Shown here in pieces: positions 7,739 to 53,394 of a stretch of DNA of 64,000 bases. The notes below the pieces were generated by a model, which had not been told where the DNA came from, did not search any database, and saw nothing but the letters and a program-made list of their open reading frames with translations. The position numbers and the translations under genes were made by a program. The stretch is from positions 1-64,000 of the forward strand of contig NZ_LT855393.1 in assembly GCF_900184735.1 (NCBI RefSeq), written 5' to 3'. This stretch comes from Paucisalibacillus globulus (GTDB lineage: Bacteria; Bacillota; Bacilli; Bacillales; Amphibacillaceae). Each line of letters begins with the position of its first letter. Position 1 is the first letter of the stretch.

Positions 7739-8710
7739 AAATGATGTGCGAATTCCTGTCATACATCATCACTACTATGATTTTGGTCTAAAATGATGTG
7801 CGAACTTCTGTCATTCTTCTTTTCAATCATAATTCTGAAGACAAATGATGCATGAACCACTCTCATTCTTCTTTTCACTCATGATTCTAAAGCTATATGA
7901 TGCATGCACTACTCTCATTCTTCTTTTCACTCATGATTCTGATGCTAAATGATGCAAGAACCACTCGCATTCTTCTTTTCAGTCATAATTCTGATGCTAA
8001 TTGATGCATGAACTACTCGCATTCTTCTTTTCAGTCATAATTCTGATGCTAATTGATGCAAGAACCACTCGCATTCTTCTTTTCAAGCATGATTCTAAAG
8101 CTAAATGATGCATGCACTACTCTCATTCTTCTTTTCACTCATGATTCTGATGCTAAATGATGCAAGAACCACTCGCATTCTTCTTTTCAAACATAATTCT
8201 GATGCTAATTGATGCATGAACTACTCTCATTCTTCACTTCAATCATAATTCTGAAGCTAAATGATGCATGAACCACTCTCATTCTTCTTTTCAACCATGA
8301 TTCTAAAGCTAAATGATGCATGCACTACTCTCATTCTTCTTTTCACTCATGATTCTGATGCTAAATGATGCATGAACCACTCGCATTCTTCTTTTCAAAC
8401 ATAATTCTGATGCTAATTGATGCATGAACTACTCGCATTCTTCTTTTCAGTCATATTTCTGATGCTAATTGATGCAAGAACCACTCGCATTCTTCTTTTC
8501 AACCATGATTCTAAAGCTAAATGATGCATGAACTACTTGCATTCTTCTTTTCAAACATGATTCTGATGCTAATTGATGCATGAACCATTCTCATTCTTAT
8601 TTTCAATCATGATTATAAAGCTAAATGATGCATGAATCACTCTCATTCTTCACTTCAATCATGATTCTGAAGCTAAATGATCCAAGAACCACTCTCATTC
8701 TTCTTTTCAA
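7739..8710. repeat. Tandem array A: 19 units of a 52-bp repeat
   Basis: The GATG that opens each unit recurs at 7743, 7795, 7847 and so on to 8679: 18 intervals of exactly 52 bp, with no insertion or deletion. The typical unit is AAATGATGCATGAACCACTC followed by TCATTCTTCTTTTCA, then a linker like ATCATGATTCTGAAGCT. The ATGA/TCAT arms form a small dyad around ACCACTC. The first two units carry the variant ATGATGTGCGA. A CATGCACTACTC variant recurs at 7899, 8107 and 8315, every 208 bp (four units), so blocks of four have been duplicated. The array fills the gap between convergent transcription units and has no open frame, since 52 is not a multiple of three. Confidence 0.97.
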
Positions 8711-8756
8711 CTACTTCCCAGTGTCCAAATGACACATAGCAACCCCACGTGCAATC

Positions 8757-8873
8757 CTAATGACGTTTACTTGGCAGATTGGCTTTATTCCCTCCACCTT
8801 GTCTCTTTCTATTATGTTCATCTTTTCTTTTTCGCTCGTTAAACTTGGCTACAAAGGTAGACGTATCTTCCAC
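8757..8873 (-). CDS. 38-residue basic protein, DUF4023-like
   Basis: A very short gene. AAAGGAGGA lies at ideal distance from a GTG start at 8873, and the frame runs 38 codons to TAG at 8757. The product begins VEDTSTFVAKFNERKRKDEH and ends LPSKRH: hydrophilic, strongly basic, without cysteine or membrane segment. The layout FVxKxxE...N-x-QGxGxxxxxLPxKxH recalls the tiny DUF4023 proteins of Bacillus and Paenibacillus, of unknown function (family match from memory). It abuts the end of array A and points towards it. Confidence 0.6.
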   Translation of the reverse strand: MEDTSTFVAKFNERKRKDEHNRKRQGGGNKANLPSKRH

Positions 8874-8942
8874 AGTCTATTCCTCCTTTATCATTTTTCA
8901 TTTAGTATTTCCCTAAACGAAAGAAATATGCTAGTAGCACAA

Positions 8943-8974
8943 CAAAAAAAAGCCCTCTGTTTTCACAGAAAGCT
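8943..8974 (-). terminator. Terminator of the transporter/zinc-ribbon operon
   Basis: On the minus strand AGCTTTCTGT-GAAA-ACAGAGGGCT forms a 10-bp stem with a GNRA tetraloop, followed by eight T. Confidence 0.88.
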
Positions 8975-8983
8975 TTGTATGGA

Positions 8984-9286
8984 TTAAAATAAATCAAGTA
9001 AGTCAAGTACCGTTTTTTTCTTCTTTTTCTTATATCCATACGGGCCATACTTTGGATCATATCCCTTATGGTAATCCTTTTTATAATCTGGTCGCTCTCG
9101 AAATTCGCGTTCGTAGGAATCAAAGGTTTCTTCATAATACTTTTGTTCTTCTTTTAAACCAGCAGTTATTTTTTCTAATTCACCACGGTCCAACCAAACA
9201 CCTTTACAGTTCGGGCAAATATCAATTAAGACATTTTCCTTTTGAACTTCCCTCATCCTAACGCCGTCACACACTGGACAATTCAT
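8984..9286 (-). CDS. Zinc-ribbon protein (zf-TFIIB type)
   Basis: A 100-residue protein with two CxxC pairs, CPVC at 3-6 and CPNC at 24-27, followed by KGVWLDRGELEKI, the signature of the zf-TFIIB zinc-ribbon family. The C-terminal half is rich in Y, K and G (KYGPYGYKKKKKK) and ends in a short hydrophobic tail, LDLLDLF. Its function is not known; a metal- or nucleic-acid-binding role is inference. It starts immediately after the CNNM transporter gene (1-bp gap), so the two are cotranscribed and it may act with that protein. Confidence 0.75.
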   Translation of the reverse strand: MNCPVCDGVRMREVQKENVLIDICPNCKGVWLDRGELEKITAGLKEEQKYYEETFDSYEREFRERPDYKKDYHKGYDPKYGPYGYKKKKKKTVLDLLDLF

Positions 9287-9287
9287 A

Positions 9288-10535
9288 TTATCCTTCCTCC
9301 ACTTCGACTAGATCTTCTTTTACGATTTGAATTTGTTTTAATGTTCTTCCGTCTACTTCCAATACTCTAAAATGAAGATTATCCTTTTCCAGTATATCCC
9401 CTTGCTGTGGGAATTGATTAAATTCTGTTAAAAGGTATCCCGAAAGGACGTCTTCTTCCTCTGGTATATCGGTATTAAATATGGAGTTCAAGCGATGGAG
9501 TGTGATTTTTCCATCACAGATAATTTCTGTATCAGTTAATTTTTCAACTAGCTTTTCACTCTCTAAATCCATCTCATCTTCAATTTCCAGACCAATCATA
9601 GCCTCAATGATATCCTCATGTGTAAGAATTCCTTCTGTTCCACCATATTCATCCAGTACAATGGCAAGGTGTTTACGGTCTCTGGTCATTTGTCGGAATA
9701 CCATTTCAATCGAATGAAATTCAAAGAACACCATTGGGTCTAGGTCACAATATTCTTCTAGTTTCTTCTCCGGTTCAATGGACCAAGTTAATAGGTATTT
9801 GGAATGGAATACTCCAATTATATTATCAATATCTCCGTCATAAACTGGATATCTCGTATATTGATTTTGAATAACTATATCTCGAACTTCTTCATACGTA
9901 GCATCATGTGGTACAGCCACTATATCAATTCGTGGTGTTTTCAAAACATCCTTTACATTTAAATCTTGGAAGTCTAGAACACCTTTAATACGGAAAGACT
10001 CCTCACGTTTAAAGGTACCCTCTGTACCCGCAATATCTACCATCGTTCTCAAATCTTCCTTAGATATAGATACGTTGTCTTCATCATTCTTTGATAACAC
10101 TTTAATAATCAAACCAGTCATGCCATTTAATAGCATGGTTAATGGCTTAAATAAAATGGTAAAAAATCGAATCACTGGATAGACGATATAGGCGATTTTA
10201 TCCGGAAAAGCTGCTGCGACAGATTTAGGTAATACCTCTGAAAAAACAATAATCGTTATCGTCAATACAGCAGAAGCTATAGCAACATTTACTCCGTACT
10301 CTAGCGCTACCATTGTCACAAGGGTAGGCAAGAGAATGTTTGCAATGTTATTCCCAATTAAAATTGCTGTAATAAACTCGCTTGGTTTTGAAACTAAATC
10401 CAATAATTTTTCTGACTTTTTATCATTATTACTTGCTTTTGTTTGTAACTTCATCTTATTCGCTGCTGTAAGAGCAGTCTCACTACCTGAAAAGAAAAAT
10501 GAAACAAACAACAATATGATGATCGCAATGATCAC
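9288..10535 (-). CDS. CNNM/CorC-type transporter (DUF21-CBS-CorC)
   Basis: A 415-residue membrane protein of the hemolysin C/CNNM group. Seen in order: DUF21 with about four membrane segments (1-180, opening with FSGSETALTAANK), a CBS-domain pair (about 195-320, including YTRYPVYDGD and AIVLDEYGGTEG) and a C-terminal CorC_HlyC domain (about 335-410). Relatives include B. subtilis MpfA (YhdP), which exports magnesium; others move cobalt or have unknown cargo. The start is GTG at 10535 with AAGGGGGAAC upstream. It is the first gene of a two-gene unit with the zinc-ribbon protein. Confidence 0.88.
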   Translation of the reverse strand: MIIAIIILLFVSFFFSGSETALTAANKMKLQTKASNNDKKSEKLLDLVSKPSEFITAILIGNNIANILLPTLVTMVALEYGVNVAIASAVLTITIIVFSEVLPKSVAAAFPDKIAYIVYPVIRFFTILFKPLTMLLNGMTGLIIKVLSKNDEDNVSISKEDLRTMVDIAGTEGTFKREESFRIKGVLDFQDLNVKDVLKTPRIDIVAVPHDATYEEVRDIVIQNQYTRYPVYDGDIDNIIGVFHSKYLLTWSIEPEKKLEEYCDLDPMVFFEFHSIEMVFRQMTRDRKHLAIVLDEYGGTEGILTHEDIIEAMIGLEIEDEMDLESEKLVEKLTDTEIICDGKITLHRLNSIFNTDIPEEEDVLSGYLLTEFNQFPQQGDILEKDNLHFRVLEVDGRTLKQIQIVKEDLVEVEEG

Positions 10536-10634
10536 TAGATAGTTCCCCCTTAAAAATCTACAATCCTTTATATTAAATGGTTACTTTAACTTTAAAATAT
10601 TTAGAACATGGAATAAAGAAAAATGTATTTCGCT

Positions 10635-11276
10635 TTATTCCATTGCTACTTCCAACCAACTTCTAAAATCATGAAAGTTTTGTTGTGACACTTGATGTCC
10701 AACAGGATAGCTAGAAAATTCAACTTGTGCTCCTAGTTGTTCATATAGATTTTTTGCTTCCTCTGCCCAATCAAATGGTAGAACTGGATCTATCTCCCCG
10801 TGTGAACAGAATAGTTTTAAGCCTTTTAGGTTTTGACCACTATACTCGTGTTTCATAAAATCCGGTATATAACCACTTAATGCCGCTATACCTTTTATTT
10901 TATGTCCTAATTTGAGACCGATGCTCATCGATAGTATGGCACCTTGGCTAAATCCCATTAAAAAGATTTTAGAAGAATCGATTGGGTGCTTTTCACACAT
11001 CTCTTCTATGAACATAACAACGCTTTCTATTGCCTGGTCAAATTCAGTACGATGTGGTTTACCAAATCCTTCAATGGTGAAAAATGCATAACCTGGTGGC
11101 TGTTCGATTGGCCCTCGCATACTAAAAATATACGCGGAATCCGCTAAATCCTGAACTAGTGGCACTAAGTCTTCTTCATTACTACCCATTCCATGCATAA
11201 GGAATATTGCCGAGTATACTTTCCCGGACTCTATCTTGTTTGGCTTAAGTAGCTTATAGTACAGGGGTGGTTCCAA
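10635..11276 (-). CDS. Phospholipase/carboxylesterase family hydrolase
   Basis: A 213-residue alpha/beta hydrolase of the carboxylesterase/thioesterase group. The oxyanion segment is FLMHGMGSNEEDL, the nucleophile elbow is GFSQG (Ser110), the acid is likely the Asp in HGEIDPVLP and the histidine lies in PVGHQVS. No signal peptide is present, so it is cytosolic; its natural ester is unknown. The start is TTG at 11276 with AAGGATG upstream. It lies between two other minus-strand genes but with gaps of about 60-100 bp, so cotranscription is uncertain. Confidence 0.83.
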   Translation of the reverse strand: MEPPLYYKLLKPNKIESGKVYSAIFLMHGMGSNEEDLVPLVQDLADSAYIFSMRGPIEQPPGYAFFTIEGFGKPHRTEFDQAIESVVMFIEEMCEKHPIDSSKIFLMGFSQGAILSMSIGLKLGHKIKGIAALSGYIPDFMKHEYSGQNLKGLKLFCSHGEIDPVLPFDWAEEAKNLYEQLGAQVEFSSYPVGHQVSQQNFHDFRSWLEVAME

Positions 11277-11334
11277 TATAAGTTCATCCTTATTATAGTT
11301 AATTTGTATTGCCTATTGATTAGAAATTCTTATT

Positions 11335-12501
11335 TTACAGGTTTTCGATAAATAATCGGATAACATCTGCTCCACCAATAAAGGTTCCAATAGAGCTTCC
11401 GATATTAGCAAAAATTACAACGAGTAGAACCCGTGTTACTTTGTTATTCCAAAAGCCTTTTAAACTATGAACATCATCTGATAATCTTTCAAAATCATTC
11501 ACATTTGGCCTTCTAAAATACGCTTGAACAAAACCAGCAAACCAACCAGCCGCAAGAAATGGTTCAAGGGATGTTATTGGTGCTGCAATAAATGCTGTGA
11601 GTACAGCTAATGGGTGTCCAAATGCTATTAGTGTACCTAGAGCAGACAGTGAGCCATTCCATAGAACCCAGCTCAATATTTGTGCCATACCCGCTTCTGC
11701 ATTCGTCATGAATGTATAAACGATTAACGCAATAATAAAGATTGGTATAGACCAACCGATAATCTTGGGAATTTTTGATTTTGGTGGGAGCTTCGCTAAG
11801 TGCTCTAGATTATGATCCTGTTTAATTTGCTCCTTAATTCCAGGTACGTGAGCTGCTCCTAATACCGCAACTACCTTATCACCTGGCGCTTCTTTAATCT
11901 TTTGCGCAAGATACTGATCGCGCTCATCGATAAGAGGCTTTTTTAGTTTTGGAAAATTATCCGTAAACTCCTGTAGCATGGAATCAATCATATCTTGAGA
12001 CTTCATCTTCTCGAGCTCTTCTTCGGAAATGGTTTCCTTTGTAAAAATACTAGCAATGACTTGTGCTAGTAACATGGCTTTTCCTTTTAGGCCAATTCCG
12101 CGCCAAATACGAGAAAATGTGGTTTGAATATCACGGTCTGCCAAAACTAGCTTAGCATCGATCTCCTTTGCTGATTCAATTCCTTGAATCATTTCTTGCC
12201 CCGGATTAATACCAAACTGATTTGCCATCCGTTTTTGGAATGAGGATATAGCAAGATTCATTAGTAATAGTGTTGCTTTACGATCTTTTATAACTTGGAA
12301 GATATCTGTTTCTTTCCATTTTTTACCTTCTGTGATAGATTTATACCTTTGTTCATCAAGTTCTATACATACGGAATCAGGTTGTTCTCTATTGATTACT
12401 TCTTTTACTTGTTCAGCGCTGTTTTTGGAGACGTGTGCTGTACCGATTAAAATGATTTCTTTACCATTTATATCTAAACGGGATATGTTTTCTTCCGACA
12501 T
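11335..12501 (-). CDS. TraB family membrane protein
   Basis: A 388-residue protein of the TraB/PrgY group. The N-terminal domain carries LIGTAHVSKNS (about 17-27), CIELDEQRY, and later GAAHVPGI: the paired GxxH motifs of the TIKI/TraB fold, which in relatives is a putative metalloprotease. About four hydrophobic segments follow from residue 250 to the end. Enterococcal TraB/PrgY blocks self-produced pheromone; the role in Bacillaceae is not known. A good AAGGAAGG site precedes the ATG. It seems to be monocistronic. Confidence 0.82.
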   Translation of the reverse strand: MSEENISRLDINGKEIILIGTAHVSKNSAEQVKEVINREQPDSVCIELDEQRYKSITEGKKWKETDIFQVIKDRKATLLLMNLAISSFQKRMANQFGINPGQEMIQGIESAKEIDAKLVLADRDIQTTFSRIWRGIGLKGKAMLLAQVIASIFTKETISEEELEKMKSQDMIDSMLQEFTDNFPKLKKPLIDERDQYLAQKIKEAPGDKVVAVLGAAHVPGIKEQIKQDHNLEHLAKLPPKSKIPKIIGWSIPIFIIALIVYTFMTNAEAGMAQILSWVLWNGSLSALGTLIAFGHPLAVLTAFIAAPITSLEPFLAAGWFAGFVQAYFRRPNVNDFERLSDDVHSLKGFWNNKVTRVLLVVIFANIGSSIGTFIGGADVIRLFIENL

Positions 12502-12626
12502 ATGGTACCTTCCTTTTATATATCTGTTTAGATATAATAATAAACTAGTTTGGTATAAATTTGAATAATTTTAATAAAAACATACTTTTGTTAACTAATA
12601 TTTTATATGGCTTACTTATCATGTCC

Positions 12627-12803
12627 GCGGCCCGAATACACTTCGCTTTCCATGGGCGGCTGCTGAGCCTCCTCAGAGCTACGCTCTTCCGGGGTCTCAC
12701 CTAAGCCTATCCTCCCATAGGACAAGAAGCGCTTCGTCAGCGTAACATCGCACGCAGAAAAAGCGCTCTTCTTTTTCAAGGAGTCTCCGTGTATTCGGGC
12801 CGC
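12627..12803. repeat. MITE-like element with 15-bp terminal inverted repeats
   Basis: A 177-bp, GC-richer island in AT-rich DNA. Its ends are perfect inverted repeats: GCGGCCCGAATACAC (12627-12641) and GTGTATTCGGGCCGC (12789-12803). The interior holds further internal complementarity (CTGAGCCTCCTCAG, GAAGCGCTTCG) and no coding frame. A decayed copy opens the window at 1-118. I see no clear target-site duplication. It resembles the nonautonomous dispersed repeats frequent in Bacillaceae genomes; mobility is inferred only from its copies and inverted ends. Confidence 0.75.
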
Positions 12804-12879
12804 TCAGTGCTATAATGTTTATTGATTATCTTTACCCTATAAGCTATTTAAAAAACTATTTTAAAAAACTACTAACAGA

Positions 12880-13296
12880 CTACTTCACTATCTCGGTCAT
12901 TGGTAGGTAGTTCATGCGCCACCTGCGCCATTGTATTTCTCGGGTTTGTCTTGGTAGGAATTGTCTTATGTCGTCGATGTGAAATCCTACTTGTAGTCTT
13001 TTTTCGTCTAGCATGATTGGGCTTCTTAAGAGTCTTGGGTGTTTATGAATTAATTCTAGTAATTCTTGAAGTGGAAGGGAGTCGATATCCACATTAAGTT
13101 CCTTGTACACTTTTGATCTAGTAGAAATTATTTCTTCCGTTCCTTCTACTGTTCTACTTAGGATTTGTTGTAATTCTGGGACCGTTAATGGTTCCTTTAG
13201 TATATTTCGTTCTACAAAGTTTATATTATTCTTTCTAAACCATTCTTTAGCTTTTCTAGTTGATGAGCATGCTGCACCATAAATCATAACAGACAT
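12880..13296 (-). CDS. Spx-like regulator lacking the second redox cysteine
   Basis: A 138-residue ArsC-fold protein closely following Spx: IISTRSKVYKELNVDIDSLP, LRSPIMLDEKRLQVGF and IRQFLPR are typical. Spx binds the RNA polymerase alpha C-terminal domain and switches on thiol-stress genes through a Cys10-Cys13 disulfide. Here the site reads CSST (Cys10, Thr13), so that intramolecular switch cannot form. The ATG at 13296 fits GGGGA at 7 bp better than the ATG at 13302. It is last in a four-gene minus-strand run starting with yugP. It could be a redox-insensitive Spx paralogue. Confidence 0.82.
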   Translation of the reverse strand: MSVMIYGAACSSTRKAKEWFRKNNINFVERNILKEPLTVPELQQILSRTVEGTEEIISTRSKVYKELNVDIDSLPLQELLELIHKHPRLLRSPIMLDEKRLQVGFHIDDIRQFLPRQTREIQWRRWRMNYLPMTEIVK

Positions 13297-13336
13297 TACC
13301 ATTCCCCATTTCTATCTAAATTCGAAATTTAGTAAG

Positions 13337-13624
13337 TTACTTTTTAACATACTGCTTGAATACATTTACGAATTGCATCGGATTGGATTTCACAGTATAT
13401 GAATAAACGCCACGAGTCGTATGTAGGTAAAGAAGGCCTGCTCCTTCACCACCTATTTGACGATAGGACATATCGAGCACTTCTTGGATGGGAAATTCAC
13501 GATGGTAACTCGTGATTTTATCGGTGTAAAGGCTTAGAAACCGTTTATGCTCGATATCAACTTGCTCAAGGCTATTAACTTTACGTTCTATCTTTATATA
13601 TTCCTGCTCTGCTAATATTTCCAC
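13337..13624 (-). CDS. Hypothetical protein, possible PH-like fold
   Basis: A 95-residue cytosolic protein that I cannot assign firmly. The C-terminal part (GLLYLHTTRGVYSYTVKS then PMQFVNVFKQYVKK: strand, strand, helix) resembles bacterial pleckstrin-homology-like domains that end in a single helix. The GTG start at 13624 has GGAGGGATTTC just upstream. The gap to the upstream membrane-protein gene is 21 bp, and the Spx-like gene follows 40 bp later, so it is part of that operon. Confidence 0.6.
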   Translation of the reverse strand: MEILAEQEYIKIERKVNSLEQVDIEHKRFLSLYTDKITSYHREFPIQEVLDMSYRQIGGEGAGLLYLHTTRGVYSYTVKSNPMQFVNVFKQYVKK

Positions 13625-13645
13625 GAAATCCCTCCAAGACTAACA

Positions 13646-14074
13646 CTATTGATCCATCAAGCGATTTTCTTCTTCTAGGAATCTAATAAAGTGGTTCATT
13701 GCAAATCCAGGTTGTTCTTTCACATTCTTGATATAGCGCTCTTTAACAGTATCTGTAATCACATTACTTTTCTTGATGCGCTTGACGATAAAAGCTTCAC
13801 TCATTTTGAGAATTTCTTTACGTTGATGCTTTGCCTCTTTTGATAGAGCAAATCCAAAAGCTCCCATAATCGCATAGAATATTAGAGCTACAATTGTTCT
13901 GTTATCCGGCATCACAACCAGCATAAAGAATAGATTAATTAAAGAAAAAGTAATCAACGGAAATGCCCAAAAAGAATATTTGGAAACTTTCTTGATGAAC
14001 GGGTGAATTGTATCATTCAATTTATCTACTTCTTTTTTTATAAAGCTCGGCATATCAGTCATTGGTAGATTCAT
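13646..14074 (-). CDS. Two-segment membrane protein, possibly DUF5392
   Basis: A 142-residue protein with an N-terminal amphipathic part (MPSFIKKEVDKLND), two adjacent membrane segments (about 32-55 and 60-78) and a cytosolic basic tail (KRIKKSNVITDTVKERYIK then FIRFLEEENRLMDQ). The layout matches a Bacillus family I recall as DUF5392; no function is known. AAAGGTGGT precedes the ATG. It lies 17 bp after yugP and so belongs to its operon. Confidence 0.6.
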   Translation of the reverse strand: MNLPMTDMPSFIKKEVDKLNDTIHPFIKKVSKYSFWAFPLITFSLINLFFMLVVMPDNRTIVALIFYAIMGAFGFALSKEAKHQRKEILKMSEAFIVKRIKKSNVITDTVKERYIKNVKEQPGFAMNHFIRFLEEENRLMDQ

Positions 14075-14091
14075 GTTAATACCACCTTTTA

Positions 14092-14775
14092 TTAATTTTC
14101 TCTTTCTCGGAAAATCATTATATATTTAACTAGCTCAAGTACCGCAATTAATGTACTAGCTACATAGGTTAGGGCTGCTGCATTTAGAACCTTTTTAACG
14201 CCTCTCTCTTCATGATTGGTAATCAAACCGAGTTCTAGCAGCTTGTTTCTTGCACGATTGGAAGCATCAAATTCTACTGGTAATGTAATCAGTTGAAATA
14301 TCACAGCTGCCGAAAAGAGAATGATACCAATTCCAATTAAATTCAGCATATCTAGTAGAAAGCCTGCAATTAATAAGAATGGTGCTAGCTGCGAACCAAT
14401 ATTAGCAAATGGAACAAGCTTATGCCTGAGAACTAACATGGAATAATGATTCGCATGTTGGATGGCGTGCCCAACCTCGTGAGCCGCAACGGACAGTGAG
14501 GAAATAGAATTCCCTCGATAAACTGGTTCAGATAAACGAATTACTTTAGCAGTCGGGTCATAGTGATCTGATAATGCTCCTCTTCTAGAAAGCTCTATCT
14601 TGACATCCGAAAGCCCCTCACTATCTAAGATTCGCCTTGCTACCTCTACTCCGGTCATTCCAGAAGAAGCTTTATTCTTGGAACCCTTGCGGAAATTACT
14701 CTTCACTCTTGTCTGTGCCAACATGGCGAGTCCAAAAGCAATAAGTATTATAAAATCCATTGGATGAAAGAACAT
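14092..14775 (-). CDS. yugP: YugP-type zinc metallopeptidase
   Basis: A 227-residue membrane metallopeptidase of the YugP family. The zinc-binding helix HEVGHAIQ is at 99-106, with the extended third-ligand region FDASNRARNKLLELGL further on. One membrane segment precedes it (6-22) and two to three follow (about 118-165 and 205-222). The substrate is unknown. AGGGGGAT precedes the ATG at 14775. It heads the run yugP, two-segment membrane protein, PH-like protein, Spx-like protein, whose spacing suggests one operon. Confidence 0.87.
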   Translation of the reverse strand: MFFHPMDFIILIAFGLAMLAQTRVKSNFRKGSKNKASSGMTGVEVARRILDSEGLSDVKIELSRRGALSDHYDPTAKVIRLSEPVYRGNSISSLSVAAHEVGHAIQHANHYSMLVLRHKLVPFANIGSQLAPFLLIAGFLLDMLNLIGIGIILFSAAVIFQLITLPVEFDASNRARNKLLELGLITNHEERGVKKVLNAAALTYVASTLIAVLELVKYIMIFREREN

Positions 14776-15030
14776 GTCAGATCCCCCTGGTGTCTCTTAT
14801 TTCTATATCTAAGGCTTGACAATATCCTCCCAGATTTATACATTAAATTATCTCCTTACTGTTATATACGAAATAACTTTGTATTTTGTTGCACAAATAT
14901 AAAAATAATTGTACTTTTCTGGGTGTAACATTATTATAAAAAAATAATATGAACTGAATATGAACTATAAAAAATAATTAAAAAAATTTTTCATATCATG
15001 AAGCATAGTTGGATATTTAAAGAAAGAGTC

Positions 15031-15059
15031 TTGTCTGGAAATTCCCATAATGCTATAAT
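15031..15059 (+). promoter_or_regulatory. Promoter of the T-box/MFS transcript
   Basis: TTGTCT (15031-15036) and a perfect TATAAT (15054-15059) are 17 bp apart, directly before the T-box leader. The start point would be about 15066. The DNA between yugP and this promoter (14776-15030) is AT-rich with nothing else recognisable. Confidence 0.75.
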
Positions 15060-15065
15060 GTATGA

Positions 15066-15372
15066 AATTTTATAGGAACATGCAATGAAGAGAAGAGTAA
15101 ATGAAATGTCGTCATAACAGAGAGCTCCAGATTGCTGAGAAGGAGTATGAAGTATTTCATTGAAACAAGCCTCCGAGCATCGCGCAGGATTCTAATTGAT
15201 GATGGCGTGACAGGAGCTCCTGTTAACGAGCTAGAGTATAAGCAGTCTTTGTGCTGCCGTACTTAAAGAGGTTAATATGGCGACATATTAACAAACTGGG
15301 GTGGCACCGCGAATATCGTTTATTCAGAATCTCGCCCCCAAGATGAATGTCTTGGGGGTGGGATTTTTTTGT
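15066..15372 (+). promoter_or_regulatory. T-box riboswitch (tRNA-sensing leader)
   Basis: Classic T-box elements appear in order: AGTA of the specifier-loop 5' strand (about 15099), AGAGAG followed by CTCC...GGAG enclosing TTGCTGAGAA (stem I distal loop), the 3' strand ATTTCAT pairing ATGAAAT, then CAAGCCTCCGAGC, and the T-box sequence GGGTGGCACCGCG at 15299-15311. The antiterminator bulge reads UGGC, so the sensed tRNA should have discriminator base G73. The specifier codon is unclear: CAA (Gln) fits the spacing to CCTCCGAG best, and ACA, AAC or GAA are alternatives. It controls an MFS transporter, not a synthetase. Confidence 0.9.
15328..15372 (+). terminator. T-box terminator hairpin
   Basis: ATCTCGCCCCCAAGAT and its complement ending GTCTTGGGGGTGGGAT form a strong stem, followed by seven T. 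Its 5' arm comes just after the T-box sequence, as expected for mutually exclusive antiterminator and terminator. Confidence 0.9.
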
Positions 15373-15410
15373 TTAATGGACTCTACTTTGTTCAATGAGG
15401 AGGTTTATAT

Positions 15411-16646: not shown

Positions 16647-16665
16647 AAAAAGTTACCGAAATTAA

Positions 16666-16699
16666 GAAACGCACCAATAACTGGAGCGTTTCATATTTT
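16666..16699. terminator. Hairpin between convergent MFS and histidine kinase genes
   Basis: GAAACGC and GCGTTTC enclose a 13-nt loop, followed by ATATTTT. It could serve both strands; the short stem makes this a moderate call. Confidence 0.5.
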
Positions 16700-45088: not shown

Positions 45089-45164
45089 TGATGATCCCTC
45101 CATGTGTGCTTTATACAGTTTATGAACAAAAATAGGAATGATGAACAAGATATGGAATAAACAT

Positions 45165-45208
45165 AAATCGTAATGATTACTATTTACAAATCGGAATCAT
45201 TACGATAT
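45165..45208. promoter_or_regulatory. Two Zur boxes upstream of znuA
   Basis: Box 1 (45165-45185) has half-sites AAATCGTAAT and ATTACTATTT around G; box 2 (45188-45208) has AAATCGGAAT and ATTACGATAT around C. Each departs from the Bacillus Zur consensus in only one or two bases. Box 2 covers the spacer and -10 region of the znuA promoter, so zinc-bound Zur would block it. Confidence 0.88.
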
Positions 45209-45211
45209 AAT
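45183..45211 (+). promoter_or_regulatory. Promoter of znuA
   Basis: TTTACA (45183-45188) and TATAAT (45206-45211) with exactly 17 bp between them, overlapped by the second Zur box. Confidence 0.8.
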
Positions 45212-45246
45212 CTGATTTGACTTTAAAAAAAGGGAGAGTTTACGTA

Positions 45247-46239: not shown

Positions 46240-46260
46240 ATAGCGCAAGCGACTATTTGA

Positions 46261-46303
46261 AAAACCCAATGTTGGAATCATCATTCCAACATTGGGTTTT
46301 CTC
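46261..46303. terminator. Bidirectional terminator between znuA and htpG
   Basis: AAAACCCAATGTTGGAAT and ATTCCAACATTGGGTTTT are an 18-bp perfect inverted repeat around CATC; the end sequence gives T runs on both strands. Confidence 0.92.
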
Positions 46304-46307
46304 TTTA

Positions 46308-48188
46308 TTATTGCGCAACCATTACTTTACACATATTATTAGTAAATTCAACTGGATCCTCAACTGGTAATCCTTCGATTAGTAAAGCTTGGTTAAACAG
46401 GATATTCGTATACAGGTCTAATTTTTCCTTATCATTCTCAAATGCATCCTTTAATGTTTGGAAGACTTCATGATTCGGATTAATTTCGAGTACCTTTTCC
46501 GCTTTTACTTGTTGATTATCAGGCATGGCACTAATGACTTTCTCCATTTCAATGGAAATTTCACCATCAGCTGTTAAACAAACTGGATGTGACTTTAGGC
46601 GTTTAGATACACGAACCTCTTTCACTTTTCCTGATAATTTGTCCTTCATATAACCGAATAGCTCTTTGTTTTCTTCTGTCTCTTGTTCAGATGCCTTTTC
46701 TTCTTCGGAATCAATACCAAGGTCATGACTAGATACCGATTTAAATTCTTTTTCCTCATAGTTCATTAAGACACGAATAGCAAATTCATCGATTTCTTCG
46801 GTGAAATAAAGGATTTCGTATCCTTTATCCGCTACAAGCTCTGTTTGTGGAAGCTTGTCAATACGGTCAATGGACTCACCTGTTGCATAGTAAATATACT
46901 TTTGATCTTCTGGCATTCTAGATACATATTCTGCTAATGTAACGAGTTTCTTCTCTTTGGAAGAGTAGAATAACAAGAGATCCTTCAAGGTATCCTTATT
47001 AACACCAAACTCATTATAAACTCCGAACTTCAATTGACGACCAAATGCTTGGAAGAACTTCTCATAGCTCTCTCTATCATCTCTTTGCAGACTAAGTAAT
47101 TGTTGCTTGATTTTCTTATTAATATTTTTCTCAATAAGCTTAAGTTGTCTATCATGTTGAAGCATTTCTCTAGAGATATTTAGAGATAAATCTTCTGAAT
47201 CTACTAGCCCTTTTACAAAGCTAAAATGGTCTGGGATTAAATCGGCACATTTTTCCATAATCAGTACACCATTTGAATATAGCTCAAGCCCCTTTTGGTA
47301 ATCTTGAGAGTAGTAATCAAACGGACGGTTTTCTGGAATGAAAAGAATCGCATTATAGCGAATGGTTCCATCCACACTTAAGTGAATATGCTTCAGTGGC
47401 TTATCAAAGCCATATCGTTTTTCTTGATAGAAGTTTTCATAATCTTCATCTGTCAGCTCACTCTTATTCTTTTTCCAAATTGGAACCATGCTGTTGATGA
47501 TTTCTTCTTCTTTATACTCCACATATTCATCGCTATCATCTTCTTTTTTACTCTTGGTAACTTCCATTTTGATTGGATAGCGAATAAAATCAGAATATTT
47601 TTTAATGATCTCTTTTAGTCGGTATTCTTCTAAGTACTCATCATAATTCTCATCTTCTGAGTTATCTTTTAGTTTCAGGGTAATTTCTGTACCTACTGTA
47701 TCTTTTTCAGCAGGCTCAATCGTATACCCGTCCGTACCTTTCGATTCCCATTTGAAAGCTTCATCACTTCCAAGTGCTTTACTTACCACGGTTACAACAT
47801 CGGCAACCATAAATGCCGCATAGAATCCAACACCAAACTGACCAATAATATCATGGCCATCTTTAATTTCATTTTCCGATTTAAAGCTGAAGGATCCACT
47901 TTTCGCAATCGTACCTAGGTTCTTTTCAAGCTCTTCCTGTGTCATCCCAATACCTGTATCTACAATCTTTAAAGTACGAGATTCCTTGTCCGCTTCAAGC
48001 TTTATATAATAATCACTTTGATTAAACGTTAAATTATCATCCGTCAACGCCTTATAGTAAATCTTATCAATCGCATCACTTGAGTTAGAGATTAATTCTC
48101 GAAGAAAAACCTCTCGTTGTGAATAGATGGAGTTAATCATTAATTCAAGTAATCGTTTCGATTCTGCTTTAAATTTCCTTTTTCCCAT
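46308..48188 (-). CDS. htpG: Molecular chaperone HtpG (Hsp90)
   Basis: A 626-residue Hsp90 with intact GHKL ATPase domain ([40 protein letters not shown]), middle domain ([31 protein letters not shown]) and a C-terminal dimerisation domain. GAAGGAG about 9 bp upstream supports the ATG at 48188; a TTG at 48206 would overlap it. A perfect CIRCE element lies 60 bp upstream. That places htpG under HrcA here, unlike B. subtilis where htpG is a class III heat-shock gene. Confidence 0.97.
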
Positions 48189-48248
48189 TTCCAACAACTC
48201 CTTCAATACGTTATTTTTGTTTGGTGTTATGAGATGGACATTTTTATT

Positions 48249-48275
48249 TTAGCACTCTCAAGGTTAGAGTGCTAA
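48249..48275. promoter_or_regulatory. CIRCE element (HrcA operator) of htpG
   Basis: TTAGCACTC-N9-GAGTGCTAA is a perfect match to the CIRCE consensus. It lies between the promoter and the htpG start codon, so HrcA would block transcription start or early elongation. Confidence 0.97.
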
Positions 48276-48291
48276 TTTTTTCACTACCAAA

Positions 48292-48321
48292 TAAATATCA
48301 TATTCATCCTGAACATGTCAA
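48292..48321 (-). promoter_or_regulatory. Promoter of htpG
   Basis: On the minus strand TTGACA (48316-48321) and TATTTA (48292-48297) with an 18-bp spacer. Transcription would begin close to the CIRCE element. Confidence 0.65.
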
Positions 48322-48404
48322 TTGGTTTATTCTCTAAGATACGGAAATAACGAAACCGCATATTTCCAATGGAATTAGGAAAATTTAAAGGCAGGAGGGA
48401 TAGC

Positions 48405-48755
48405 ATGAATCATCAATTTTTATCAATCGAGGAGTTTAATGCATTAATACAACAATGGAATGGCAGATCCATAAAAATAACCAAACACGAAATGGATGAT
48501 GTGGACCAAACGGTAATGAATCTAAGTGACGTATCCTACGAACAGAACACACGACGAATAGACGATTATGTACCCATGCATAATTTACTTCTAAACGGGG
48601 ATGGACATATTGAAACACTGGCAGCCATGAGTACCCAGCCGCTTCCATCATCTGTATATGAAATTCCGCTTCAGAATAATTCGCTGTACGAATATGATGG
48701 GGAGAAATTTTTCATCACGACAGAGCGTGGGGTTTATAAGATTGAGTTAGCTTGA
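48405..48755 (+). CDS. Hypothetical cytosolic protein
   Basis: A 116-residue protein beginning NHQFLSIEEFNALIQQWNGR, followed by IKITKHEMDDVDQTVMNL and ending EYDGEKFFITTERGVYKIEL, a strand-rich C-terminus. I recall similar short Bacillaceae proteins but no function. GCAGGAGGGATAGC places the ATG at 48405. It is followed directly by array B with no clear terminator between. Confidence 0.65.
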   Translation: MNHQFLSIEEFNALIQQWNGRSIKITKHEMDDVDQTVMNLSDVSYEQNTRRIDDYVPMHNLLLNGDGHIETLAAMSTQPLPSSVYEIPLQNNSLYEYDGEKFFITTERGVYKIELA

Positions 48756-48800
48756 GTAAGTGAGCTTTAAACATCTTTATGAACGGGGTTTTTGATTGAA

Positions 48801-49508
48801 ATGAATCATGTGAGTACTTTGTACATCATTTTGGAAAGGCTTTGTGAATGAAATGATGTATGGAAGTAACCTATGCATCATTTTGAATAGGCTGTGTAAA
48901 TGAAATGATGTATAGAAGCAACCTATGCATCATTTTGAATAGGCCATGTAAATGAAATGATGTTTGGGAGCACTCTATACTTCATTTTGATTAGGCTGTG
49001 TAAATGAAATGATGTTTGGGAGCACCCTATACTTCATTTTGAATAGGCCATGTAAATGAAATGATGTTTGGGAGCACCCTATACTTCATTTTGATTAGGC
49101 CATGTAAATGAAATGATGTTTGGGAGCACTCTATACTTCATTTTGATTAGGCTATGTAAATGAAATGATGTTTGGGAGCACCCTATACTTCATTTTGAAT
49201 AGGCCACGTAAATGAAATGATGTTTGGGAGCACCCTATACTTCATTTTGAATAGGCCATGTAAATGAAATGATGTTTGGGAGCACCCTATGCATCATTTT
49301 GAATAGGTTGTGTAAATGAAATGACGTTTGGGAGCACCCTATACTTCATTTTGGACAAGCACTGTGAATGAAATGATATACGAGAGTGCCCTATGCATCA
49401 TTTTGAACAGGCAAAGTAAATGAAATGAAGTATGAAAGAACCTTGTACATCATTTTGATCAGCTAATACAGATAAGATGATAAATAACAATGCTCAATGC
49501 TCTCTATC
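48801..49508. repeat. Tandem array B: 14 units of a 52-bp repeat
   Basis: ATGA starts recur at 48801, 48853, 48905 and on to 49477: 13 intervals of exactly 52 bp with no insertion or deletion. The core unit reads AAATGATGTTTGGGAGCACC then CTATACTTCATTTTGA plus a linker like ATAGGCCATGTAAATG. In the early units TATAG-AAGCAAC-CTATG can form a stem inside AAATGATG...CATCATTT; in the middle ones GGG-AGCA-CCC replaces it. The middle units are nearly identical, the end units more diverged. The array fills the gap between the convergent 48405 gene and yhbH. Confidence 0.97.
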
Positions 49509-49573
49509 ATTTCGAACTAAAATAAGTACTGAACTAATGTAAGAACATTAATTTCCCCCTATTACAAGCCCAG

Positions 49574-49602
49574 AAAAACCCCTAGGAATGTTCTCCTAGG
49601 GA
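49574..49602 (-). terminator. Terminator of yhbH
   Basis: On the minus strand CCCTAGGA-GAACAT-TCCTAGGG is followed by GTTTTT. It lies 11 bp after the yhbH stop. Confidence 0.88.
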
Positions 49603-49612
49603 TTTTCATATA

Positions 49613-50782
49613 TTACACCGTCATGGCTTCACGCTGGAAGAAGCTCTTCATCGCATGATAGACATCTCGTTTTTCTTTTAAAATAAAGTGGCGAAACTTT
49701 TCATTTTCAATGGTGCTATAGGCACGCATCAGGGTGGAATGACGGTTATAGATATTTACTTCGGCATAGCCAAACATATTGGAAACATCCATAATTTCAT
49801 TTACGAGACGGATACATTTTGGGTTGTCAGAGGTGATATTCTCACCATCTGAAAAGTGAAAAGGATAAATATTATAGCGTGAAGGGTTATAGCGACTATC
49901 AATTAATTCGATTGCTTTTGCATAGGCGGAGGAACAAATGGTACCGCCACTTTCTCCTTTATTAAAAAATTGCTCTTCCGTCACTTCTTTTGCTTCGGTA
50001 TGGTGAGCTATAAAGGCAATATCTACATGTTCGTATTTGGTTTTTAAGAATCGTGTCATCCAGAAAAAGAAGCTTCTTGCCATATACTTTTCAAATGATC
50101 CCATGGAAGCACTGGTATCCATCATGGCAAGCACCACTGCCTTTGATTCTGGTCTGATTACTTCATTCCATGTTTTGAAACGTAAATCATCATTATAAAT
50201 TGGAGTAATTCCAGGGTTCCCTTCTCTTGCATTCCGTTTTAAGGCAGTTAATATCGTTCGTTTCTTATCAATATTTCCCATTAAGCCTTTCTTCCGCACA
50301 TCATTAAACTCAATCTTTTCTGTTATAATCTCTGACTTCTCTTTTTCCTTTAGATTGGGTAATTCTAATTCCTTAAATAGGGCTTCCTCTAACTTCTCTA
50401 ACGATACCTCAGCTTCATAGTAGTCGTTGCCAGGCTGATCGCCTGCCTTCTTTCCATCGCCAGGACCTGGTCTTCCTTGACCTTTTGCGTTCGGATCTTT
50501 TCCTACTACATCTCCTACTTTACTGTCTCCATTACCTTGCCCTACATGCTTTGACTTGTTGTAGTTGTATCGGATTTTGTATTCATCTAGTGAACGGATT
50601 GGAATTTTGATTACATCTCGCCCGTTAGACATCACGATACTTTCTTCACTTATTAAATCAGGTAAATTATTTTTAATGGCTTCCTTTACTTTATCCATGT
50701 GTCGCTGTTGGTCTTGAAAGCCTTTGCGATGGAGGGACCAGTTTTCCTCGGAGATGACAAAGTTCTGTTTACCTTCCTGCAC
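49613..50782 (-). CDS. yhbH: Sporulation protein YhbH (DUF444)
   Basis: A 389-residue DUF444 protein with a von Willebrand A-type domain in its second half ([17 protein letters not shown] holds the DxSxS metal site; FHFSDGENI further on) and a glycine-rich linker at about 85-115 ([19 protein letters not shown]). In B. subtilis it belongs to the mother-cell regulon together with prkA; its precise job is unknown. The start is GTG with AGGAGGGGATGTT. It lies 175 bp after prkA but a terminator and a possible sigma-E promoter separate the two. Confidence 0.92.
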
Positions 50783-50848
50783 AACATCCCCTCCTATTCA
50801 TTGTTGATAAAAGTACCGACATCTAAGAAGATTTCGATACTTTTCTCT

Positions 50849-50875
50849 ATAATATGCAGTTAGGCGCATATTATT
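50849..50875 (-). promoter_or_regulatory. Possible sigma-E promoter of yhbH
   Basis: On the minus strand AATAATA (50869-50875) and CATATTAT (50849-50856) are 12 bp apart. The -10 matches the CATA...T pattern of mother-cell sigma-E; spacing is slightly short. Confidence 0.35.
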
Positions 50876-50899
50876 GCAATTTATTAATAATAATAGATT

Positions 50900-50941
50900 A
50901 AAAAAAGGTAACAAGACTAGCTTTCGGCCACTCTTGTTACC
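50900..50941 (-). terminator. Terminator between prkA and yhbH
   Basis: On the minus strand GGTAACAAGA and TCTTGTTACC enclose a 15-nt loop, followed by TTTTTTT. It lies 16 bp after the prkA stop, so yhbH needs readthrough or its own promoter. Confidence 0.88.
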
Positions 50942-50957
50942 ATATCATCATGCATAA

Positions 50958-52853
50958 TTATCGATTCAACAAACTTCCCACATATCGTAAGAGCTCATTC
51001 GCTGATACCGAATTATATCCATATTCATCTATCAATCTAGCAATTACCTCATTAATCTTCTTCAGTTGTGACTCATCTGGTGTCTTAGACGAGGTGGTTA
51101 TTTTCACCACATCTTTTAAATCTGCGAATAACTTCTTCTGGATAGCCTCCCGTAGCCTATCATGTGAATTATAATCAAATCGTTTCCCTTTTCTTGCATA
51201 AGCAGAGATTCGAATGAGAATTTCTTCACGGAAAGAACGTTTGGCATTTTCAGAAATACCGATTTGCTCTTCAATTGAACGCATTAACTTTTCATCTGGA
51301 TTCATTTCCTCACCGGTTAATGGATCCCGTAGCTTATTTTTATTACAAAATGCCTCTACATTATCAAGATAGTTATCCATTAACGACTTTGCCGATTCTT
51401 CGTAAGAGTAAACGAATGCTTTCTGAACTTCTTTCTTAGCAATTTCGTCATACTCTTTCCTAGCTATGGAGATATAGTTCATATAAGTTTCTCTGTCTTC
51501 GTCTGAAATCGATGCATGTTGGTCAAGACCTTCTTTCAAGGAGCGTAATACATCTAGAGCATTGATTGATGGCACTTCTTTACGGATAATAGCAGAGGAG
51601 ATTCGGTTGATGACATAACGAGGATCAATTCCATCCATTCCTTCTGTTGGGAACTCACGCTTCAAATCCTCCACATCAACTTGGTTATATCCTTCTACAT
51701 TCTCCCCGTCATACAAGCGCATTTTCTTCAATAAATCCATTCCCTGTTTCTTCGAGTCTTCTAATCTCGTTAAGACAGAGAAGATAGCTGCAACGCGTAA
51801 TGCATGTGGGGCAATATGAACATGGGACATATCACTCTGATTGATCATCTTTTCATAAATTCTTTCTTCTTCACTTACCCTTAGGTTATATGGAATTGGC
51901 ATCACAATGATTCTAGAATGCAGTGCTTCATTCTTCTTATTGGAAATAAAGGAGCGATATTCCGATTCGTTCGTATGTGCAACAATCAGCTCGTCGGCTG
52001 AGATTAGTGCGAACCTACCTGCTTTGAAATTACCTTCCTGTGTTAAAGATAGTAAATGCCATAAGAACTTCTCATCACATTTCAACATTTCCTGAAACTC
52101 CATCATTCCACGGTTAGCCTTATTTAATTCTCCATCAAACCGGTAAGCTCTCGGGTCTGATTCCGATCCATATTCCGCTATCGTTGAAAAATCAATACTC
52201 CCAGTTAGGTCTGCTATATCCTGGGACTTCGGGTCAGACGGACTAAAGGTTCCAATTCCAACACGTTTATCCTCCGATAGAAAAATACGCTCCACCATTA
52301 CATCTTCCACACGTCCGCCATAGTCTTTCTCCAGACGCATCGTGTTTAACGGGGATAGACTACCTTCAATTCGAATACCATATTCATGGAAAAAGTCTTC
52401 CCGTAAATGATGTGGGATTAAATGGAGTGGATCCTCGTGCATTGGACAGCCTTTAATGGCATAAACTGCACCTTCATCTGTTCGTGAATATTTTTCTAAA
52501 CCTCGTTTTAACATGGTTACAATAGTAGATTTACCACCACTAACCGGGCCCATTAATAATAGAATACGTTTTCTTACATCTAGCCGCTTTGCAGCAGGAT
52601 GAAAGTATTCCTCAACAAGTCGTTCAATAGCATCTTCTAAACCAAATATCTCTTCTCCAAAGAACTCAAACATCTTCCGACCATTTCGTTCCTTTACCCC
52701 AGCTGCTTTGATCATATTATAAACTCGCGAATGAGCAGTCTGGGCAACTTCAGGTCTTTCTTTTATTAACCCTAAGTACTCCGCGAATGTACCTTCCCAC
52801 TTTAAACGATTCTCCTCTTCACGAAAGCTCTTTACCTTGTTAAGAATATCCAT
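50958..52853 (-). CDS. prkA: PrkA AAA+ protein/serine kinase-protease
   Basis: A 631-residue PrkA: N-terminal AAA+ domain with Walker A GPVSGGKS (102-109) and a C-terminal PrkA domain. In B. subtilis it is made in the mother cell and supports sigma-K-dependent sporulation; both kinase and protease activities have been reported for the family. The start is ATG 52853 (MDILNKVKSFREEENRLKWE), preceded by GGAGGGAAGAT and matching homologues; the frame extends to 52943 without support. Upstream, tandem array C occupies the divergent gap to yeeI. Confidence 0.95.
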   Translation of the reverse strand: MDILNKVKSFREEENRLKWEGTFAEYLGLIKERPEVAQTAHSRVYNMIKAAGVKERNGRKMFEFFGEEIFGLEDAIERLVEEYFHPAAKRLDVRKRILLLMGPVSGGKSTIVTMLKRGLEKYSRTDEGAVYAIKGCPMHEDPLHLIPHHLREDFFHEYGIRIEGSLSPLNTMRLEKDYGGRVEDVMVERIFLSEDKRVGIGTFSPSDPKSQDIADLTGSIDFSTIAEYGSESDPRAYRFDGELNKANRGMMEFQEMLKCDEKFLWHLLSLTQEGNFKAGRFALISADELIVAHTNESEYRSFISNKKNEALHSRIIVMPIPYNLRVSEEERIYEKMINQSDMSHVHIAPHALRVAAIFSVLTRLEDSKKQGMDLLKKMRLYDGENVEGYNQVDVEDLKREFPTEGMDGIDPRYVINRISSAIIRKEVPSINALDVLRSLKEGLDQHASISDEDRETYMNYISIARKEYDEIAKKEVQKAFVYSYEESAKSLMDNYLDNVEAFCNKNKLRDPLTGEEMNPDEKLMRSIEEQIGISENAKRSFREEILIRISAYARKGKRFDYNSHDRLREAIQKKLFADLKDVVKITTSSKTPDESQLKKINEVIARLIDEYGYNSVSANELLRYVGSLLNR

Positions 52854-53042
52854 ATTATCTTCCCTCCATCTTGGACGCGGTTTATATAGCTTATGCAAGA
52901 CTTCCTGTCGAGATGCCGAGAATTTAGGCGAAAGGTTGTCCAAGTGGCAGTTTGATTAATACTTTTATAGGTACTTACCGGATTGGATAATGACTGGCCC
53001 TCTTTAGCATTACTTCTTCTCCAGGTAAATCTCTTAGAACAT

Positions 53043-53394
53043 CATGAGGGACATTGTCATCATTTTTTCACTCTAAATTATCTCTCTAAATCGTTATGAG
53101 AGGTTTCCTCATCATCTTTTCTCTCCAATTTTTCTCTCTAAAATGTCATGAGAGCACTTCTCATCATCTTTTCTCCCCAAATTACCTCTCCAAATCATCA
53201 TGAGAGCTCTCCTCATCATCTTTTCAAACCAAATTACCTCTCCAAATCGTCATGAGAGCACCTCTCATCACCTTTTCAAACCAAATATCTCTCAAAATCA
53301 TCACGAGAACTCTCCTCATCATCTTTTCACTCAATTATCTCTCCAGAAACATCATGAGGCGCTTTAACAACCGGTTTCCAACACAAACATTCTT
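53043..53394. repeat. Tandem array C: about seven units of a 52-bp repeat
   Basis: CATGAG (or TATGAG/CACGAG) starts at 53043, 53095, 53147, 53199, 53251, 53302 and 53353: four steps of 52 bp and two of 51. The unit reads AAATCATCATGAGAGCTCTC then CTCATCATCTTTTCA plus a linker like AACCAAATTACCTCTCC. ATGAG-N7-CTCAT forms a small hairpin in most units. The array lies between the start regions of divergent prkA and yeeI. The remaining stretch 52854-53042 looks like ordinary prkA leader. Confidence 0.95.

What the first reader, a model, noticed from the sequence alone, without database searches (positions are those of the whole stretch)
7739..53394. A family of intergenic 52-bp tandem repeats with one shared design and exact helical phasing
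Three arrays (A 7743-8710, B 48801-49508, C 53043-53394) have different sequences but the same period, 52 bp, and the same layout: left arm AAATGATG or AAATCATC, an ATGA/TCAT-like dyad around about 7 nt, right arm ending CATTTTGA or CTTTTCA, then a 15-16 bp linker. All three read in the same orientation. Arrays A and B keep exact 52-bp phase over 18 and 13 intervals although units differ by many substitutions, and C departs by only one base twice. Since 52 bp is five turns of B-DNA at 10.4 bp per turn, each dyad would face the same side of the helix. Conservation of length over sequence suggests selection for phasing: a nucleoid or chromosome-organising protein array, a cooperative operator or a structural insulator. 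This is the best candidate for an undescribed system here; I cannot tell whether it has been described.
Basis: partly seen in the sequence, partly recalled or inferred. Interest (0 to 1): 0.88.

Follow-up and report, generated by a model that had tools for sequence, protein, structure and literature searches.

The report
DNA-repeat arrays paired with a nuclease
The evenly spaced 52-base repeats between genes look like docking-site arrays for a dedicated DNA-cutting-type protein whose own gene usually sits beside such an array, which may explain a large group of repeats that had no known maker.

Summary
Arrays A and B keep a strict 52-bp period, C slips to 51 twice, all share one palindromic layout and one reading direction. 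About 25 places in this Bacillales genome look like such arrays, 11 of them known only by BLAST similarity.

The unexpected result is a partner gene. Array neighbours recurrently encode NERD-domain (PF08378) proteins. One NERD clade (class I, about 300 aa) has an adjacent 51-52-bp array in 53 of 59 genes; a second clade (class II) has 20-21-bp arrays in 54 of 60; other NERDs have no 51-52-bp array in 22 of 22. MarR control genes: 2 of 30, NERD genes 22 of 30 on the same measure. Genomes with class I carry the dispersed 52-bp pattern (25 of 32, against 0 of 29 without).

Palindrome arms vary less between units than centre or linker. Arrays favour convergent gene gaps and one orientation to GC skew.

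Best reading: the arrays are cognate sites of a vertically inherited NERD protein, REP/RAYT-like in logic. Binding, cutting and purpose are inferred, not shown.

The parts
7708..8738 (+). Array A, 52-bp units: 20 left arms (AAATGATG type), right arms CATTCTTCTTTTCA type, between two FMN-reductase-like genes on the left and a Zn-ribbon/CNNM operon on the right (convergent)
   Evidence: best match among NERD-side arrays is L249 in G001, the syntenic ortholog of own gene G000:C5:66113-67027
48797..49458 (+). Array B, 13 complete palindromes TGAAATGATGTNTGG..CCCTATACATCATTTTGA at exact 52-bp spacing, between a gene of unknown function and a DUF444 gene (convergent)
   Evidence: best match among NERD-side arrays L160 in G005
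53036..53360 (+). Array C, 7 left arms (AAATCGTCATGAGAG) with intervals 52,52,52,52,51,51, between prkA and yebC (divergent)
   Evidence: no clear own-genome cognate (best own 0.54, best overall 0.63 to L261 in G007)
48369..48755 (+). Gene of unknown function left of B; no Pfam match
49613..50782 (-). DUF444 gene right of B; the same gap holds different arrays in other species
50958..52943 (-). prkA, left of C; used as anchor for comparison with 80 named genomes
53444..54244 (+). yebC, right of C
6960..7628 (+). NADPH-dependent FMN reductase gene left of A

Best explanation
The arrays are rows of palindromic binding sites for a dedicated chromosomal protein, a class I NERD-domain protein of about 300 aa with a conserved PD-(D/E)XK-type nuclease core, a four-cysteine zinc-ribbon-like knot and a C-terminal stretch that I read as helix-turn-helix. 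A genome with the system has one to five matches to such genes, most with an array just 3' of the gene, and related arrays scattered between other genes. Most likely a dimer sits on each palindrome, contacts between neighbours fix the unit at 51 or 52 bp, and the protein propagates or maintains the arrays in a way tied to replication direction. In logic this resembles REP elements with their RAYT transposase. Shown here: strict period; palindrome arms less variable than centre and linker; NERD clade predicts array period; genome-level co-occurrence; many dispersed arrays resemble the NERD-side array of the same genome; arrays turn over fast beside syntenic, stable NERD genes; bias to convergent gaps and to one orientation. 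Inferred: that the protein binds the dyad, that it cuts or nicks, and that it, rather than plain recombination, spreads the arrays.
For: Class I NERD genes with adjacent 51-52-bp arrays: 43 of 47 plus 10 of 12 examined later. Class II with 20-21-bp arrays: 54 of 60; the remaining NERDs with 51-52-bp arrays: 0 of 22. Tree built without the labels: 42 of 45 in the class I clade carry 52, 55 of 59 in the class II clade carry 21, 9 label changes against 54 in shuffles. Control MarR genes 2 of 30 against NERD 22 of 30. Class I genomes with at least 3 pattern matches 25 of 32, others 0 of 29, p = 4e-11. Independent 398-genome sample: class I at E < 1e-100 in G000, G328, G417, G455; pattern counts 52, 31, 0, 67; at most 5 in each other genome. 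Within-array variation: centre 12.8%, arms 5.8% and 5.3%, linker 9.8% over 52 arrays. Best NERD-side match in the same genome for 28 of 59 dispersed arrays, shuffles mean 2.8 and at most 11. Protein and array similarity correlate, r = 0.365, 0 of 2000 permutations. Active-site residues E42, D74 and K89 in 45 of 45 and E87 in 42 of 45 class I proteins, four cysteines in 45 of 45. Orthologous genes syntenic, one locus in 8 of 11 genus genomes. No class I relative in plasmids, phages or viral contigs.
Against: No binding or cutting data. The helix-turn-helix is read by eye; Pfam, NCBIfam and solved-structure searches did not confirm it. Six of 59 class I genes have no array. G002, G004, G036, G052, G060 have class I but fewer than 2 pattern matches, and G417 has none, although arrays without the pattern word lie beside the gene in G004, G036, G052, G060 and, with two copies, G417. 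In G006 one class I gene carries a stop yet its side array and similar dispersed arrays persist, so arrays can outlive the gene for a time. All three window arrays match best a side array of another species; array C has no clear cognate in its own genome. Only 24 of 72 dyads pass a single-array shuffle test. The five seed NERDs of the profile were chosen because they lie beside arrays, and one search scored only the five best candidates per genome.
Confidence: 0.72

Rival explanations
1. Structural or regulatory array: the NERD protein is mainly architectural, and the polar arrays between convergent genes act as boundaries, transcription or replication blocks, or chromosome-polarity marks; nuclease activity is secondary.
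For: 26 of 53 arrays lie between convergent genes against 47 of 335 other gaps; orientation to GC skew in 37 of 45 arrays; the same gap is filled by unrelated arrays in several species.
Against: Fast loss and gain between species: no array in several orthologous gaps. Convergent gaps are also where insertions do least harm. Nuclease residues are strongly conserved.
Confidence: 0.25
2. Defence: the NERD protein is an anti-invader nuclease and the arrays are chromosomal decoys or a store that holds or tunes it.
For: NERD occurs in known defence proteins (table row in PMC10952713, passage seen); weak matches to MAD6 and PglW models.
Against: No PADLOC family matches at a convincing score; the genes are single and syntenic across species, unlike typical defence islands.
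Confidence: 0.15
3. Association without causation: arrays grow by replication slippage in permissive gaps; NERD genes merely sit in or tolerate such gaps, or use a nearby array to regulate themselves.
For: Arrays lie in permissive gaps; orthologous genes share flanks, so some array-gene links are inherited together.
Against: Does not explain why the clade predicts 21 or 52, why genomes without class I lack the pattern, or why dispersed arrays resemble the NERD-side array of the same genome.
Confidence: 0.08
4. RNA elements: each unit is a hairpin of a transcribed repeat.
For: Each unit holds an inverted repeat.
Against: No RNA-type covariation within 40 arrays: 3 double changes keep pairing and 9 do not; G-T against A-C changes 74 to 57. 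The only Rfam match in the window is a T-box elsewhere. The would-be loop is the most variable part.
Confidence: 0.04

Closest known systems
REP/BIME elements with RAYT (REP-associated tyrosine transposase)
   Same: Small palindromic intergenic repeats, several families per genome, and a chromosomal endonuclease-type gene beside its own repeats (RAYT details recalled; passages of PMC3733652 seen).
   Different: The partner is a NERD protein (PF08378), not a Y1 tyrosine transposase; the repeats form same-direction tandem arrays of fixed 51-52 or 20-21-bp period.
STAR elements of Staphylococcus
   Same: Intergenic direct-repeat arrays of roughly 50 bp, a core kept between loci and a spacer kept within a locus, unknown function, in a fellow member of Bacillales (passages of PMC3532100).
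   Different: GC-rich 14-bp core with 40-44-bp spacers (54-58-bp period by sum); the core is not enriched in the window (27 matches with up to 3 mismatches, 23.9 expected); no partner gene was named in the passages seen.
CRISPR arrays
   Same: Regular partly palindromic repeats linked to a nuclease gene.
   Different: The linker is part of the repeat and nearly alike in every unit; no unique spacers; the linked gene is NERD, not cas.
Canonical NERD proteins
   Same: Same domain and core residues.
   Different: No 51-52-bp array beside any of the 22 genes outside classes I and II; class I and II carry a different C-terminal part.

Membership tests
REP/BIME-RAYT | Repeats are intergenic palindromes dispersed in the genome | tested here: met
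   53 of 55 readable contexts intergenic; about 25 places in the own genome
REP/BIME-RAYT | Partner gene is a Y1 tyrosine transposase flanked by the repeats | tested here: not met
   The recurrent neighbour identified is NERD, PF08378; presence of Y1 transposases elsewhere in the genomes was not searched
STAR elements | 14-bp core T(G/A/T)TGTTG(G/T)GGCCC(C/A) | tested here: not met
   No enrichment in the window
STAR elements | Core plus 40-44-bp spacer | tested here: not met
   Period 52 or 51
CRISPR | Unique spacers between identical repeats | tested here: not met
   Linker nearly alike between units, 9.8% variation
NERD domain family (partner protein) | Match above the curated Pfam cut-off | tested here: met
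   53 to 66 bits in the five array-linked genes scanned, cut-off 22.1; 50 genes in 11 genus genomes over the cut-off
PD-(D/E)XK nuclease | Conserved E, D and (D/E)xK core | tested here: met
   45 of 45 for E42, D74, K89, 42 of 45 for E87; equating these with catalytic residues rests on recalled knowledge of the fold
PD-(D/E)XK nuclease | Cleaves DNA | not testable with these tools
   No bench data; structure prediction switched off
Nucleoid or insulator array | Evidence of chromosome-structuring function | not testable with these tools
   Only position and orientation bias are known

The most novel reading that the evidence does not exclude
A previously undescribed two-branch genome system: NERD nuclease clades that each write intergenic site arrays of a period set by the protein (51-52 bp for class I, 20-21 bp for class II), spread them in a replication-polar way, and so decide which repeat fills the same gene gaps from species to species; the arrays may then serve the cell as polar chromosome landmarks.
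Probability: 0.4. Interest if true: 0.95.

Novelty: categorically new. Interest (0 to 1): 0.86.

Why it matters
Many bacterial minisatellites have no known maker. Here a repeat class is tied to a particular protein clade, and the clade predicts the repeat period. If right, it gives NERD proteins, whose domain was called unstudied in any bacterial protein before 2022 (passage of PMC9040797), a testable substrate; it explains a large share of intergenic tandem repeats in Bacillales; and it offers a bacterial case of a protein that sets the unit length of tandem DNA.

Tried and rejected
RNA hairpins: paired changes inside arrays and Rfam gave no support. Coding repeats: two rows of 51-54 bp lie in genes and were dropped from later counts (L152:544 and L167:16859). 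Indel-to-substitution ratio as proof of phasing: 146 to 2,176, too ordinary; two arrays (L031, L035) give 43 of the 146 events. A family containing an ABC-transporter ATPase also recurs near arrays (9 proteins at 7 arrays); it belongs to a very large family and was not followed. STAR core not found. Defence libraries: no convincing family. Plasmids, phages, viral contigs: no class I relative. Orientation in two other genomes: G053 looks split into two arcs but has too few arrays to test; G328 is mixed. The coding background of the orientation word is 61.6% against 54.5% in intergenic DNA; against the former the orientation result would be weaker. Literature: nine searches of open-access full texts, of which listings and abstract starts were seen, and passages of four papers. 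None of what was seen links NERD with repeats; most subscription journals lie outside the library, so absence from print is not established.

Limits. TRF labels depend on thresholds; class limits are E-values against a profile of five array-linked NERDs. Not every NERD match was fetched: searches list more places than the 133 loci scanned. One search scored only the five best candidates per genome.
Full report
OBSERVATION. Arrays A, B and C are real. By TRF they have period 52 and 17.3, 13.2 and 5.8 copies. Direct counting of left arms gives 19 of 19 intervals of 52 in A, 12 of 12 in B, and 52,52,52,52,51,51 in C. All three read the same way on the + strand. The window is part of a 3.92-Mb genome in 23 contigs; the closest named relatives by prkA are Paucisalibacillus sp. 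EB02 and Ornithinibacillus.

HOW COMMON. The pattern of three TTTTSA words 51-53 bp apart matches 52 times in this genome and at least once in 38 of 61 genomes, own included. The 52 matches fall in 13 places; BLAST of the regions of A and of B and C adds 11 places known only by similarity, and a NERD-side array one more, about 25 in all. In the set chosen without regard to arrays (80 loci around prkA plus the window, 1.74 Mb) the non-overlapping TRF rows of period 20 or more cluster at 20-21 bp (43 rows) and 51-52 bp (8 rows, three of them in the window).

ANATOMY. Of 70 arrays 58 have a dyad by a loose score with a gap of at most 10; aligned on their centres, mostly a single base, the arms share preferences (T at position 5 in 70%, C at position 12 in 70%), dominated by the commonest family, roughly AAATGA-n-ATAGAAN-N-NTTCTAT-n-TCATTT. 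Variation between units is 12.8% in the 7-bp centre, 5.8% and 5.3% in inner and outer arms and 9.8% in the linker (52 arrays). Centres were chosen by complementarity, not by variation, so this is separate evidence that the arms are the kept part, as in a two-fold protein site. RNA-type covariation is absent. In single-array shuffles only 24 of 72 dyads reach P < 0.05.

PLACE AND TURNOVER. Of 53 arrays with clear neighbours 26 lie between convergent genes (25 by script; window A was misassigned through a spurious ORF and corrected by hand), against 47 of 335 array-free gaps of at least 100 bp, p = 4.6e-8. Orthologous gaps show quick turnover. At B: 13 units here and about two in G001, an unrelated 52-bp array in G005, 21-bp arrays in G002 and G008, none seen in G006 and G009. 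Ornithinibacillus halotolerans has a 51-bp array beside the same DUF444 gene, Lentibacillus L079 a 52-bp array in the orthologous gap. At C: a related array in G005, a different one in G009, a roughly 21-bp one in G010, none seen in G001, G003, G006 and G007. At A: a single unit in G007, which matches Paucisalibacillus sp. EB02 in sequence at C.

THE PARTNER. Clustering genes next to 53 arrays showed a recurrent family that Pfam names NERD, PF08378, in five of the six non-control proteins of that cluster scanned. All 11 genus genomes have NERD genes, 50 in all. Of 30 fetched NERD loci 22 have a 19-22, 40-43 or 50-53-bp array (or a multiple), of 30 MarR loci of the same genomes 2 (p = 1.4e-7). 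Over 129 distinct NERD-like ORFs (from flanks), class I has 51-52-bp arrays in 43 of 47 (39 downstream, 9 upstream, 4 of these on both sides), class II has 20-21-bp arrays in 54 of 60 (24 on both sides), and the remaining 22 have no 51-52-bp array, three a 21-bp one. A tree built without the labels shows the same split: 42 of 45 in the class I clade (support 100) carry 52, 55 of 59 in the class II clade (support 82) carry 21; 9 label changes suffice where shuffles need 54 on average. Twelve class I proteins met later have the array in 10 cases, one of them with only 2.2 copies, 53 of 59 in all.

GENOME-LEVEL TEST. Class I (E < 1e-60) is in 32 of 61 genomes. The pattern occurs at least three times in 25 of these and in 0 of the other 29, p = 4e-11. 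In a 398-genome phylum sample, with five candidates scored per genome, class I at E < 1e-100 occurs in G000, G328, G417 and G455, all of the same order. Pattern counts there are 52, 31, 0 and 67, and at most 5 in each of the other 394. G229 of the same class has a weak match (1.7e-31) with 21- and 49-bp TRF rows beside it. G002, whose class I match holds a stop, has no pattern match; in G006 one class I gene holds a stop yet its side array and similar arrays elsewhere persist.

COGNACY. The own genome has three class I genes and one class II gene. Side arrays are F1-like 52 bp (C5, C22), F2 51 bp (C10) and 21 bp (C12). Each kind has similar sequence elsewhere in the genome (for the 21-bp kind 14 other places by BLAST, not checked one by one). 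Of 59 dispersed arrays compared with 58 NERD-side arrays, 28 match best in the same genome (shuffles: mean 2.8, at most 11), 17 of 25 outside the densely sampled genus, and in those 28 the exact period agrees each time; my score slightly favours equal lengths. Of 34 in the genus, 23 match best in another genome, 22 of these in the same genus, including all three window arrays (A to L249, the syntenic ortholog of the own C5 gene; B to L160; C to L261). Protein and array similarity correlate (r = 0.365, 0 of 2000 permutations; 0.28 for pairs of different genera, not permuted). Orthologous class I genes keep their neighbours, one locus in 8 of 11 genus genomes, while the side arrays differ in sequence and once in period (52 beside L332, 51 beside the other seven): the gene stays, the array changes.

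PROTEIN. In 45 class I proteins E42, D74, K89 and four cysteines are invariant and E87 is in 42 (alignment). The C-terminal stretch LFPxxKxTTxxIxxWCxxxxSKxxIxRIL reads to me like a helix-turn-helix, not confirmed by searches; the cysteine knot has weak zinc-ribbon matches to RNA polymerase subunits, E 0.05 and up. No class I relative in plasmids, phages or viral contigs.

REPLICATION POLARITY. With TTTTSA as direction, 37 of 45 arrays with clear local GC skew have the motif on the negative-skew strand, 29 of 37 with one array per locus. The same word outside arrays does so in 180 of 330 intergenic (54.5%) and 1,102 of 1,789 coding sites (61.6%); p = 0.002 against the former. Direction is defined by a T-rich word and some arrays are related, so this is a moderate result.

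MECHANISM. The simplest account is a protein-and-site system: a NERD dimer on each palindrome, the distance between dimers fixed by protein contacts (about five helical turns for class I, two for class II), array growth or spread through breaks or nicks handled at the replication fork. The first half rests on the above; the second is inference by analogy with REP/RAYT (recalled). What it does for the cell is open: tolerated self-propagating repeats, chromosome landmarks, or a defence-related nuclease with decoys.

NOVELTY. In nine literature searches nothing seen links NERD genes with tandem repeats. Single aspects are familiar (REP/RAYT logic, STAR-like arrays), but membership tests fail on partner protein, core and period. 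I file it as categorically new as far as these searches reach.

Noticed in passing
L248 (G000:C12:163022), L259, L383, L388 and other class II loci: A second NERD clade is flanked, often on both sides, by 20-21-bp tandem arrays, some with a conserved half and a variable half of the unit; a parallel system to the 52-bp one.
   Followed up: partly
window 7708-54244 and L140-L179: Arrays are oriented with respect to local GC skew (37 of 45), pointing to a replication-linked process.
   Followed up: partly
G053:C1: On this nearly complete chromosome arrays of one family read - at 0.08-0.50 and 3.02 Mb and + at 2.2-2.6 Mb, as expected if direction follows the replication arms; too few to test.
   Followed up: no
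window 59297-60511: 404-aa protein of DUF346 repeats (five stretches, Pfam) with weak fungal-lectin similarity; its gene gives the 135/270-bp tandem repeat.
   Followed up: partly
window 6379-7628: Two adjacent FMN-reductase genes; in several genus relatives the gap comparison matched only part of this pair.
   Followed up: no
window 15076-15342: T-box leader, the only Rfam match in the window.
   Followed up: no
L116 (Psychrobacillus insolitus DSM 5): A class II NERD match falls in two pieces of one reading frame, so the gene looks broken; a 175-bp tandem repeat lies on the same locus.
   Followed up: no
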